Of a DNA stretch of 64,000 nt, positions 22,605-58,035 are shown piece by piece. The translations under genes and the position numbers were made by a program. Below the pieces are notes generated by a model. The model saw only the letters and a list, made by a program, of their open reading frames with translations. It had not been told where the DNA came from and made no database searches. The stretch's first letter is position 1, and each line of letters begins with the position of its first letter. The DNA comes from Sulfitobacter sp. (lineage in GTDB: Bacteria > Pseudomonadota > Alphaproteobacteria > Rhodobacterales > Rhodobacteraceae): assembly GCA_017854855.1 (NCBI GenBank), contig JAFMGZ010000007.1, positions 1 to 64,000 on the forward strand. Reading direction: 5' to 3'.

Positions 22605-22631
22605 GTAAGGTGCAGATCATCTGCACCCTAC
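22605..22631. repeat. REP-like hairpin 1 (after the LPS glycosyltransferase)
   Basis: Perfect palindromic arms GGTGCAGAT / ATCTGCACC around a single C (22609-22627), framed by GTAA on the left and CTAC on the right. It lies between convergent genes. It shares the GTA(A/G)GG foot with the other hairpins listed here while the stem differs. Confidence 0.7.
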
Positions 22632-33770: not shown

Positions 33771-33793
33771 GGTGGAGGAGGCCTCCACCCTAC
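33771..33793 (-). repeat. REP-like hairpin 5 (after the DppC-type gene)
   Basis: GGTGGAGG (33771-33778), AGG, CCTCCACC (33782-33789), then CTAC. The minus strand therefore reads with a GTAGGG foot. It starts 12 nt after the permease stop. Confidence 0.7.
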
Positions 33794-33816
33794 GTAAGGT
33801 GGCCCCCCGGGCCACC
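33794..33816 (+). repeat. REP-like hairpin 6 (adjacent, inverted to hairpin 5)
   Basis: GTAAGG foot, GGTGGCCC (33798-33805), CCC, GGGCCACC (33809-33816). Together with hairpin 5 it makes a second head-to-tail inverted doublet, as at 31645-31698. Confidence 0.7.
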
Positions 33817-41023: not shown

Positions 41024-41046
41024 GGTGGGCGACGCGCCCACCTTAC
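41024..41046 (-). repeat. REP-like hairpin 7 (between the SDR gene and the RAYT gene)
   Basis: GGTGGGC (41024-41030), GACGC, GCCCACC (41036-41042), then TTAC; the minus strand has the GTAAGG foot. It starts 13 nt after the SDR stop and 103 nt before the RAYT start, the arrangement expected for a RAYT gene and one of its cognate REP sites. Confidence 0.75.
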
Positions 41047-41087
41047 CCCAAACCACCGCCCTCAAGCCCCAAACTTTCCCCCGCCCC

Positions 41088-41102
41088 TTAAGCCCCCGTT
41101 AA
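41088..41102 (+). promoter_or_regulatory. CtrA-type box upstream of the RAYT gene
   Basis: TTAAGCCCCCGTTAA, i.e. TTAA-N7-TTAA followed by CC, matches the CtrA response-regulator consensus of alphaproteobacteria. It ends 25 nt before the ATG at 41127. Confidence 0.45.
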
Positions 41103-41106
41103 CCAA

Positions 41107-41124
41107 GCCCACCCTAGGCTGGGC
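41107..41124 (+). promoter_or_regulatory. hairpin overlapping the RAYT translation start
   Basis: GCCCACC-CTAG-GCTGGGC, 6 of 7 stem positions paired, ending 2 nt before the ATG. It contains a CTAG loop. It would mask the ribosome-binding region and is a candidate self-recognition site. Confidence 0.45.
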
Positions 41125-41126
41125 CC

Positions 41127-41699
41127 ATGTCACATTACATCCGCCGCCGCACGCCCGGTGCCACCTATTTCTTCACCATCCGCCTTGCAGACCGCCACAG
41201 CGACCTGCTGACCCGCCAGATCGGCCCGCTGCGCGCGGCCATGCGCGCCACCCTGGACCGTCACCCTTTCCACATCGACGCGATCACCGTACTGCCCGGC
41301 GTGATCCACACCCTATGGACCCTGCCCGCAGATGACGCCGATTTTGCCACCCGCATCGGCATGCTGAAATCGCGCTTCTCGCGCAGCCAGCCGATGCCGC
41401 CCGACCGCAGCCTGACCCAGATCAGACGTGGTGAAAAAGGCATCTGGCAACGGCGCTACTGGGAACATGAAATCCGCGACAAGGCCGACTTTGACCGCCA
41501 CCGCGACCTGATCTATCTCAGCCCCGTCCACGCAGGCCTCTGCCCCCGCCCGCAAGACTGGCCGCATACATCGCTGCACCGTGACCTGCGTCAGGCCAAA
41601 CCAGCCCCGCCGCCCATCGGCCATGGTGCAGCGGGCCTGCACCTTACACATCCCGCCCCGCCCCGCTCAGAGGCAAAGCAAAGACATCTCACCGCCTGA
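41127..41699 (+). CDS. degenerate REP-associated tyrosine transposase (RAYT)
   Basis: 190 aa Y1-transposase-like protein. From memory of the E. coli TnpA-REP sequence, the frame aligns nearly without gaps: RRTPGATYFFTIRL, then VLPGVIHTLWTLPADDADF where the family has VLPEHMHCIWTLPEGDDDF, then IWQRRYWEHEIRDKADFDRHRDLIYLSPVHAG where the family has IWQPRFWEHAIR and VDYIYINPVKHG. The first His of HuH is thus Val59 and the catalytic Tyr is Leu128. A Pro/His-rich tail of about 35 residues is added. It is probably catalytically inactive but may still bind hairpins. Confidence 0.85.
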   Translation: MSHYIRRRTPGATYFFTIRLADRHSDLLTRQIGPLRAAMRATLDRHPFHIDAITVLPGVIHTLWTLPADDADFATRIGMLKSRFSRSQPMPPDRSLTQIRRGEKGIWQRRYWEHEIRDKADFDRHRDLIYLSPVHAGLCPRPQDWPHTSLHRDLRQAKPAPPPIGHGAAGLHLTHPAPPRSEAKQRHLTA

Positions 41700-57406: not shown

Positions 57407-57451
57407 TGTACGTGGGGTGTACGCCCGGTGTACGTCCTGTGACATTTAACC
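57407..57451 (+). repeat. 45-bp dispersed element, copy 2
   Basis: Matches 7078-7122 at 34 of 45 ungapped positions, with the TGTGACATTTAACC block complete. It lies 24 nt after the TPR gene stop, and its final TTAACC forms the first half of a CtrA-type box. Confidence 0.7.
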
Positions 57452-57460
57452 CCTTATTAA
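57446..57460 (+). promoter_or_regulatory. CtrA-type box upstream of the DUF4177 gene
   Basis: TTAACCCCTTATTAA, i.e. TTAA-N7-TTAA followed by CC, 69 nt before the ATG of the DUF4177 gene. It fits the CtrA consensus in both half-sites. Confidence 0.5.
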
Positions 57461-57528
57461 CCCTCTGATCGTTCCCTTTGCCTGCTACTTGCAGTAAATA
57501 CGTCTCATTCCCAAGGTCGAGACAGCAC

Positions 57529-58035
57529 ATGCCCCGTTACGAGTACAAAGTTGTTCCCGCCCCCACAAAGGGCCTCAAAGGCAAGGGCGTGAAAGGGCCT
57601 GAGGCGCGGTTTTCCCATGCGCTTCAAGAGCTTATGAACGGACTCTCAGGTTATGGTTGGGAATATCAGCGCGCCGAAACCCTGCCGTCGGTGGAACGTT
57701 CGGGCCTGACATCGACCACCACGGAATGGCGCAACGTCCTGGTCTTTCGCCGCCTGCGCGAGACCGGAGCCGAGGCTTTCGCCCCAGAACTGCTCCCGCC
57801 GCCCGACCAGACCCCTCCGACCCCGCAAAACGCGGCCCCCCCGTCCTTGGCGGAAGCTGCAAAACCGGGGGACGATCCGGCGGAAAATGCCCCGCCAGAC
57901 AGCCCGCCAGATGAGGCAGAAACGCCCGAACACAGCGCCGAAAATGACAGCGATCATGAGGATAACGGCGTTGAGGAAACCCGTGATGAGAAGAACCTCA
58001 GCGTCAGCCTGAAAACGCTGCTGTCTTTTCGATAG
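57529..58035 (+). CDS. DUF4177 domain protein with acidic disordered tail
   Basis: 168 aa from MPRYEYKVVPAPTKGLKGKG; 17 upstream codons are open but family alignment starts at MPRYEYKV. The N-terminal 75 residues (YEYKVVPAP, FSHALQELMNGLSGYGWEYQRAETLP, EWRNVLVFRR) form the DUF4177 fold. Residues about 85-155 are Pro-, Asp- and Glu-rich and should be disordered. A short C-terminal stretch LSVSLKTLLSFR is hydrophobic. Function unknown; CtrA control is suggested by the upstream box. Confidence 0.8.
   Translation: MPRYEYKVVPAPTKGLKGKGVKGPEARFSHALQELMNGLSGYGWEYQRAETLPSVERSGLTSTTTEWRNVLVFRRLRETGAEAFAPELLPPPDQTPPTPQNAAPPSLAEAAKPGDDPAENAPPDSPPDEAETPEHSAENDSDHEDNGVEETRDEKNLSVSLKTLLSFR

What the first reader, a model, noticed from the sequence alone, without database searches (positions are those of the whole stretch)
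41024..41699. Degenerate REP-associated tyrosine transposase next to a REP-like hairpin
The 190-aa product aligns with RAYT/TnpA-REP along its length. At the catalytic positions it has Val59 in place of the first HuH histidine and Leu128 in place of the nucleophilic tyrosine (GVIH for EHMH; DLIYLSP for DYIYINP, the reference recalled from E. coli). It keeps the fold-defining WTLP, IWQRRYWEH and DWP motifs and a full ORF. A complete frame with dead catalysis suggests domestication, for instance as a hairpin-binding regulator, rather than plain decay.
Basis: partly seen in the sequence, partly recalled or inferred. Interest (0 to 1): 0.78.

Follow-up and report, generated by a model that had tools for sequence, protein, structure and literature searches.

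The report
Inactivated transposase kept as host gene
A jumping-DNA enzyme in marine Sulfitobacter bacteria has lost its cutting residues, yet relatives have kept it intact at one chromosomal place behind what looks like a cell-cycle and motility control switch, which suggests it now does a job for the cell.

Summary
The 190-aa ORF (41127-41699 +) is a RAYT/TnpA-REP homologue (NF047646, 145 bits; fold match 4er8) with Val59 for the first HuH His and Leu128 for the Tyr. I also find Ser132 for the third metal ligand (Asn119 of E. coli TnpA-REP). This is not private decay: 31 of 62 genus genomes carry the dead form, all at one locus. 40 fully dead sequences form an inner clade, all at that locus (one confirmed on one side only). 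Close pairs show dN/dS 0-0.18. Genomes without the gene mostly have a clean short gap. The REP hairpin beside the window gene is real, but REP adjacency is mostly lost in the dead clade (12 of 40, against 54 of 61 active Rhodobacteraceae RAYTs). Conserved instead is a CtrA-type box (TTAA-N7-TTAAC) at -37 to -40 in all 40 dead genes (35 with at most one mismatch) and about half of active Rhodobacteraceae RAYTs, against 7 of 576 neighbouring ORFs. Best reading: a domesticated, catalytically dead RAYT under CtrA control, probably still binding hairpin nucleic acid. Residue loss and selection are well supported; CtrA control is inferred from sequence; hairpin binding is untested; the cellular role is unknown.

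The parts
41127..41699 (+). ORF of 190 aa, catalytically dead RAYT/TnpA-REP homologue
41301..41303 (+). codon of Val59, where active RAYTs have the first HuH histidine
   Evidence: dead set V 21, T 10, A 6, L 2, one other, of 40; active Rhodobacteraceae H 62 of 62
41307..41309 (+). codon of His61, second HuH histidine, kept
   Evidence: 40 of 40 dead
41508..41510 (+). codon of Leu128, where active RAYTs have the nucleophilic tyrosine (Y115 of E. coli TnpA-REP)
   Evidence: L 33, M 6, Q 1 of 40 dead; Y in 62 of 62 active Rhodobacteraceae
41520..41522 (+). codon of Ser132, where active RAYTs have the third metal ligand Asn119
   Evidence: S 26, A 13, X 1 of 40; ligand role from PMC6006769 passages
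41088..41104 (+). CtrA-type box TTAAGCCCCCGTTAACC, starting 39 bases before the ATG
   Evidence: consensus TTAA-N7-TTAAC as printed in PMC3692519 and PMC4046655
41115..41120 (+). TAGGCT, possible -10 hexamer, at -12 to -7 from the ATG (inferred)
   Evidence: sequence; a TANNNT word in -18..-5 in 22 of 40 dead genes, none of four Shine-Dalgarno-like words in the last 20 bases in 40 of 40
41024..41046 (-). REP hairpin GTAAGGTGGGCGCGTCGCCCACC, 80 bp upstream of the ATG
41625..41647 (-). REP-like hairpin GTAAGGTGCAGGCCCGCTGCACC inside the 3' end of the ORF, same orientation as the upstream one

Best explanation
A RAYT (single-strand HuH/Y1 transposase of REP elements) that the host has taken over. 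Its active site is dismantled: the first metal-binding His, the nucleophilic Tyr and the third metal ligand are replaced, so it should not cut or join DNA. Where present, the gene is kept by selection at one locus between pntA-side genes and the GATase gene, and reads from a promoter whose widely conserved element is a CtrA-type box at a fixed distance from the ATG (probably a leaderless transcript). The likeliest mode of action is that CtrA switches on a small basic protein that still folds like TnpA-REP and binds hairpins of single-stranded DNA or RNA without cleaving them. Shown here by computation: homology, residue losses, clade, locus, purifying selection, conserved box. Inferred: loss of catalysis, CtrA control, leaderless start. 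Not shown: hairpin binding and the cellular process served.
For: Family and fold. First His, Tyr and Asn replaced in the dead set of 40 (one Asn position unreadable, X), H61, K81, W107 and W112 kept 40/40, clade-specific new residues R19 39/40 and A136 39/40. No tyrosine column conserved in the dead set; the best has 26 of 40. A 49-row clade (support 100/99) in which 48 rows have A or S and one has X at the Asn position, with a 40-row fully dead inner clade (98/95), catalytic columns left out. Same locus in 40 of 40 of the inner clade, L192 on one side only. 16 pairs with core dS under 0.88 have omega 0.00-0.18. Of 30 genus loci without the gene, 28 have a gap of at most 395 bp to the nearest of the window's neighbour genes, and there is no convincing remnant. 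CtrA-type box best match at -37 to -40 in 40 of 40: 25 perfect, 10 with one mismatch, 5 with two. Background: 7 of 576 neighbouring ORFs with at most one mismatch, three of them the RAYT's own box read from the divergent gene. Four of the other eight exact 17-mer sites in G000 precede a flagellin, a LuxR-type autoinducer-binding regulator, an Hpt protein and a PAS-domain protein, the kinds of genes linked to CtrA in Dinoroseobacter (PMC4046655, passages). Basic protein, pI 10.9.
Against: No expression, binding or CtrA data exist here; the box is sequence only. Genome-wide the exact 17-mer is only modestly enriched (9 sites against 3 for the pattern read backwards), and the other genes do not share the RAYT's spacing to the start. 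Residues that contact GTAG in E. coli (Q95, position 100, R104; PMC8266576 passages) are only partly kept: 37, 31 and 26 of 40; N-terminal Y4 and R6, kept in 61 of 62 active Rhodobacteraceae sequences, remain in 12 and 14 of 40, so DNA specificity may have changed or been lost. The gene is absent from 31 of 62 genus genomes, so it is dispensable at genus scale. About half of active Rhodobacteraceae RAYTs have the box too, so the box may predate and not explain the domestication. The 16 low-omega pairs come from three groups of close relatives; pairs with the window gene among those printed have omega 0.17-0.37 at dS 0.88-1.05, and the maximum over 142 pairs is 0.52. The C-terminal tail looks unconstrained.
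Confidence: 0.6

Rival explanations
1. A decaying transposase: catalytic residues lost first, frame still open by chance.
For: C-terminal tail varies freely; gene missing from half of the genus; isolated RAYTs elsewhere in the family also have single lost residues.
Against: Dead state shared by 40 sequences in one clade, omega 0-0.18 in close pairs, presence or absence without convincing remnants, promoter box kept across divergence near saturation at silent sites.
Confidence: 0.04
2. Still a nuclease, with other residues in the active site.
For: H61, H114 and H125 are kept in 40, 37 and 39 of 40.
Against: Three catalytic positions lost together; H114 and H125 are also conserved in active RAYTs (61 and 55 of 62), so they look like no replacement; no conserved tyrosine. 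Y-to-F mutants of three TnpA-REPs gave no cleavage product (PMC8266576 passages).
Confidence: 0.05
3. A keeper of the REP population: it binds REPs as a non-cutting competitor that restrains active RAYTs or marks REPs for regulation.
For: The window genome has a REP family and one RAYT match only, and two of the REPs sit at the gene. Dead-only genomes have a higher REP excess than genomes with neither kind (median 3.5 against 0, p 0.012, not corrected for kinship).
Against: 15 of 22 dead-only genomes have an excess of 5 or less; genomes with a counted active RAYT differ more clearly from the rest (p 1.3e-4); ten species keep the gene with an excess of -2 to 6 (counts) and none for a second REP pattern; only 9 of 31 dead-gene genomes also carry a counted active RAYT; REP adjacency mostly lost.
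Confidence: 0.15
4. The fold has been recruited for protein binding or another task without nucleic acid.
For: Partial loss of GTAG-contact residues and of Y4/R6; new fixed residues R19 and A136.
Against: Strong positive charge (pI 10.9; median 10.3 in the dead set, 9.7 in active Rhodobacteraceae); K81 kept 40/40, beside the E. coli position K82 that PMC8266576 places in the DNA-binding helix. Position 82 itself is S, A or G in 37 of 40 dead and mostly A or S in active Rhodobacteraceae copies.
Confidence: 0.12

Closest known systems
RAYT / TnpA-REP (E. coli TnpA-REP, PDB 4er8; NCBIfam NF047646; class 2 of PMC6006769)
   Same: Sequence family, fold, length, second HuH histidine, WTLP / IWQRRxWEH / DWP motifs, one copy of this kind per genome in the genus.
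   Different: First HuH His, Tyr and third metal ligand replaced; no conserved flanking REPs; clade-specific R19 and A136. PMC6006769 wrote that absence of core motifs suggests 'non-functional proteins' and kept only sequences with HuH and Y (section read).
S. maltophilia REPtron (group 3; PMC8266576)
   Same: 23-nt REPs with an 8-bp palindrome and 3-nt loop behind a GTAG tag (passages), like many of the GTAR-tagged 23-mers in the window genome.
   Different: Its TnpA-REP is active and its Y130F mutant gave no product; here the protein RAYT search found no active partner in the genome.
CtrA regulon of Rhodobacterales (PMC4046655, PMC6473078, PMC3692519; passages read)
   Same: TTAA-N7-TTAAC box; flagellin, LuxR-type, Hpt and PAS-domain genes share it in G000.
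   Different: The passages read name no transposase; search listings show zero hits for 'transposase' in PMC4046655 and PMC7232146 and in PMC6473078. Supplementary tables were not available.
Exapted, nuclease-dead TnpB homologues (TldR; recalled, nothing read)
   Same: A transposon enzyme kept as a binding protein after losing its active site.
   Different: Different enzyme class (RNA-guided RuvC), different target recognition; analogy only.

Membership tests
RAYT / TnpA-REP | Sequence profile of REP-associated tyrosine transposases | tested here: met
   NF047646 144.8 bits, cut-off 80
RAYT / TnpA-REP | TnpA-REP fold | tested here: met
   4er8 first hit of the predicted model, E 2.5e-16
RAYT / TnpA-REP | HuH motif, both histidines | tested here: not met
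   V59, H61
RAYT / TnpA-REP | Nucleophilic tyrosine (Y---NP) | tested here: not met
   L128, S132-P
RAYT / TnpA-REP | Gene flanked by two inverted REPs (PMC2817692, abstract passage) | tested here: not met
   Window: two hairpins, both on the - strand. Dead set: REP-like hairpin up 10, down 4, both 2, either 12 of 40 (shuffled 0.15); active Rhodobacteraceae either 54 of 61 (shuffled 0.10); other active 19 of 54 (shuffled 0.11), so the scan or the criterion is weak outside the family
RAYT / TnpA-REP | ssDNA cleavage and strand transfer at REPs | not testable with these tools
   needs purified protein
Domesticated gene | Kept at a fixed locus under purifying selection | tested here: met
CtrA regulon | TTAA-N7-TTAAC box near the start | tested here: met
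   41088-41104; 35 of 40 dead genes with at most one mismatch
CtrA regulon | CtrA binding and CtrA-dependent transcription | not testable with these tools
   needs ctrA mutant or ChIP

The most novel reading that the evidence does not exclude
RAYTs of Rhodobacteraceae, active and dead, are wired into the CtrA programme that also runs motility, quorum sensing, gene transfer agents and DNA uptake. The dead branch has become a CtrA-induced, non-cutting hairpin-binding factor acting on single-stranded DNA during DNA exchange or replication, no longer needing REPs.
Probability: 0.2. Interest if true: 0.85.

Novelty: new variant of a known kind. Interest (0 to 1): 0.68.

Why it matters
RAYTs are described as domesticated transposases of unknown benefit (PMC8049555, PMC6006769, passages read). 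A clade in which the catalytic residues are gone but the gene is kept separates benefit from transposition: what selection sees here is unlikely to be REP spreading by cutting. The grade of relatives that lost only Asn, then Asn plus Tyr, then also His gives natural steps for following the change of function, and the CtrA-type box points to a condition under which to look for it. The clade also shows that filtering homologues by catalytic residues, as the survey in PMC6006769 did, can hide exapted proteins.

Tried and rejected
Hairpin next to the gene as its conserved partner: rejected for the clade. REP abundance as the reason for keeping the gene: weak and not corrected for kinship; a GC-richer REP class (GTARGGCG...CGCC) is raised over its control in a few genomes (such as G009, G051, G054) but not in the ten-species branch. 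Only these two REP patterns were counted. Alternative catalytic residues: none found. Tail of the protein: low model confidence and variable, not interpreted. Literature: eight searches, most with capped listings, showed no title or abstract start on a catalytically dead RAYT clade or on RAYT and CtrA; the library lacks most subscription papers, and Bertels 2017 (PMC5581495) was not held.

Rows dropped or partial: 6 of 264 RAYT stretches were shorter than 140 aa and dropped; L232 was left out of the tree, which used 30 of 119 HHYN sequences (22 of 63 Rhodobacteraceae, 8 of 56 others) and 72 variants. Short RAYT fragments (for example in G017, G023, G050, G051, G054) were not classed as dead or active. 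The genome-contig scan kept 80 of 454 relatives. In the family search (394 genomes, 129 with a match) only part of the matches was fetched, mostly full-length ones. The omega set had 41 sequences (the 40 plus L196) and counts only pairs with dS under 1.5. The 'active other' set of 57 was split by locus number, not by taxon, and holds one Rhodobacteraceae MAG (L102). GATase tree: 66 of 67 loci, L192 missing. The 16 'active' genomes were listed by me.

Full report
Observation. The ORF at 41127-41699 (+) encodes 190 aa. It matches NCBIfam NF047646, REP-associated tyrosine transposase, at 144.8 bits against a cut-off of 80, and E. coli TnpA-REP 4er8 at E 2.7e-29; Pfam is silent. An AlphaFold2 model from 29 aligned sequences (pLDDT 85.2) finds 4er8 first (E 2.5e-16) and IS200/IS605-type transposases next. 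In the alignments V59 faces the first HuH histidine, L128 faces Y115 and S132 faces N119, the third metal ligand (ligand role: PMC6006769 passages). H61 is intact.

Relatives. In 62 genomes of the genus (own included), 40 have a match. Aligned, the full-length copies fall into two kinds: 31 genomes carry a copy with the first His and the Tyr replaced, and other copies, sometimes in the same genome, have DHxH plus YCxxNPVKHG. Short fragments were not classed. Titles place the genus as Sulfitobacter. With family-wide and wider loci I had 264 RAYT stretches, 258 at least 140 aa long, 192 unique. The state at H59/H61/Y128/N132 is HHYN in 119 of 192; VHLS, THLS, AHLA and similar states make up the dead kind.

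Tree. A tree of 102 sequences with the four catalytic columns left out puts the window's group in one 49-row clade (bootstrap 100, SH-aLRT 99); at the Asn position 48 rows have A or S and one has an unreadable X. An inner clade of 40 (98/95) lacks all three residues. The other nine rows, whose own grouping is not well supported, include L203 with only the Asn lost, L200 and L201 with Asn lost and Tyr to Phe, L199 with Asn and Tyr lost but both His kept, and five rows with the first His lost as well. The natural reading is Asn first, then Tyr, then His; the order is inferred, and the tree has few columns. H61 is lost in 2 of 102 rows only, L216 and L243, both outside this clade.

Locus. In all 31 dead-gene genomes of the genus the gene lies next to the same GATase gene (from a 133-bp overlap to a 339-bp gap). 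glcG and/or glcB lie beyond it in 30 of 31 (not within the stretch of L161), and pntA, an ICMT-like gene or an SDR gene on the other side in 30 of 31 (L187 is near a contig end). Nine further loci of the inner clade, L191, L192, L194 (gene inverted), L195, L198, L202, L060, L063 and L064, share the place, L192 on one side only. Of the nine other rows of the 49-row clade, L196, L197, L199, L200, L201 and L203 show none of these neighbours, nor do the 5-kb stretches of L244 and L260; L193, on a 3.8-kb contig, lies beside a pntA homologue. Of the 31 genus genomes without the dead gene, 30 have the GATase. In 28 of these the gap to the nearest of the window's neighbour genes is at most 395 bp; one is at a contig end and one has 1,255 bp; one weak tblastn match (E 0.008) is the only candidate remnant. 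The GATase tree needs seven changes of presence, so there were repeated losses or transfers.

Selection. By Nei-Gojobori counts on the core, 16 pairs with dS under 0.88 have omega 0.00-0.18; they come from three groups of close relatives. Printed pairs with the window gene have omega 0.17-0.37 at dS 0.88-1.05. Over 142 pairs with dS 0.1-1.5 the median is 0.28 and the maximum 0.52 (41 sequences). The tail after residue 155 varies freely. In the dead set of 40, H61, K81, W107, W112, W145, P57, P67, P133, G137 and S149 are invariant; R19 and A136 are new residues fixed in 39 of 40, where active Rhodobacteraceae copies have mostly A/N/C and H. Of the GTAG contacts named in PMC8266576 (passages; its D100 is E100 in 4er8), Q is kept in 37, E in 31 and R104 in 26 of 40. 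No tyrosine column is conserved (best 26 of 40). This is a constrained protein without the known active site.

REPs. The window genome has a REP family: 53 strand matches of GTARGGTG-N8-14-CACC against 6 in the reversed control, with eight close inverted pairs among the places listed. The protein search finds one RAYT in the genome, this one. One REP ends 80 bp before the ATG and one lies inside the 3' end of the gene, both on the - strand. In the clade this is the exception. With a stricter scan, 7 of 37 dead loci have such a hairpin near (one of the seven, L190, is poor). With a looser scan it is 12 of 40 (shuffled 0.15) against 54 of 61 active Rhodobacteraceae genes (shuffled 0.10) and 19 of 54 other active genes (shuffled 0.11). 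In 44 of the 61 the stop codon is itself the TAA/TAG of the REP tag, against 3 of 40 dead and 1 of 54 other active genes. Ten related species keep the dead gene with an excess of -2 to 6 of these REPs (worked out), and 15 of 22 dead-only genomes have an excess of 5 or less. Against this, dead-only genomes have a higher excess than genomes with neither kind (median 3.5 against 0, p 0.012); genomes with a counted active RAYT differ from the rest at p 1.3e-4; neither is corrected for kinship. The gene has been largely uncoupled from REPs.

Promoter. Aligning upstream regions of varied dead loci showed two conserved words and little else. They spell TTAA-N7-TTAAC, printed as the CtrA full site in PMC3692519 and PMC4046655 (passages). 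In the 40 dead genes the best match within 120 bases starts at -37 to -40 in every case: 25 perfect, 10 with one mismatch, 5 with two; mononucleotide shuffles reach one mismatch or better in 0.13%. Of 576 other ORFs in the same loci, with starts chosen mechanically, 7 have such a match, one of them at -36..-42; three of the seven, that one included, are the RAYT's own box read from the divergent gene. Of the nine grade rows 8 have it, two of these farther upstream; active Rhodobacteraceae RAYTs have it in 33 of 62 (3 perfect), all at -37 to -40, other variants in 15 of 24, and the remaining active RAYTs in 0 of 57. All 40 dead genes start with ATG, none has a Shine-Dalgarno-like word among the four tried, and a TANNNT hexamer is seen in 22 of 40; a leaderless transcript is my inference. 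The 17-base form occurs nine times in G000 against three for the reversed control, a modest excess. Besides this gene it precedes a flagellin, an Hpt protein, a PAS-domain protein and, behind a short ORF, a LuxR-type autoinducer regulator, at other distances than here; also a gene with an Aconitase_C domain and three places with no clear sense.

Interpretation. A transposase of the RAYT family lost its catalytic centre stepwise, was fixed at one place in an ancestor shared by several Rhodobacteraceae genera, lost its REPs in most lines and is kept by selection behind a CtrA-type box. I take it to be a CtrA-controlled protein that binds structured single strands without cutting. In Rhodobacterales CtrA is linked to flagella, quorum sensing, gene transfer agents and Com proteins (PMC4046655, PMC6473078, passages), so single-strand DNA handling during DNA exchange is a plausible but unproven use.

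Known or new. It is a RAYT homologue but fails the catalytic and REP-flanking criteria of a working RAYT. PMC6006769 reduced 924 sequences to 722 by asking for a complete core with HuH and Y, and wrote that absence of core motifs suggests non-functional proteins (section read). The listings of eight literature searches showed no description of a retained dead RAYT clade or a CtrA link; that library and the listings are partial.

Noticed in passing
active RAYT genes of Rhodobacteraceae, e.g. L205, L206 (and intermediates L199, L200): The stop codon of the RAYT gene is the TAA or TAG of the GTAA/GTAG tag of the downstream REP in 44 of 61 active Rhodobacteraceae copies, against 1 of 54 other active copies (examples, where L205 and L206 have variant metal-ligand states).
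   Followed up: partly
promoters of active Rhodobacteraceae RAYTs (33 of 62): The CtrA-type box lies at -37 to -40 there too, in some with a hairpin running into its first half-site (e.g. L032, L035, L208).
   Followed up: partly
L221, L243: A second, separate pair of RAYTs with lost catalytic residues (QHIL and HRIA states) groups together away from the window's clade.
   Followed up: no
L204, L206, L207, L226, L237, L249, L257: Seven RAYTs keep HuH and Tyr but have Asp in place of the Asn metal ligand (HHYD), scattered over the tree.
   Followed up: no
window 57446-57462 (+): A second exact TTAA-N7-TTAACC box in the window, upstream of an ORF starting near 57529 with no Pfam match.
   Followed up: partly
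window 22605-22631 and 33771-33816: Further REP hairpins of the same family, the second as an adjacent inverted pair.
   Followed up: no
G053 (no RAYT found, 64% complete): The genome with the most GTARGGTG REP matches of the 62 (74 strand matches) has no RAYT match; the assembly is incomplete.
   Followed up: no
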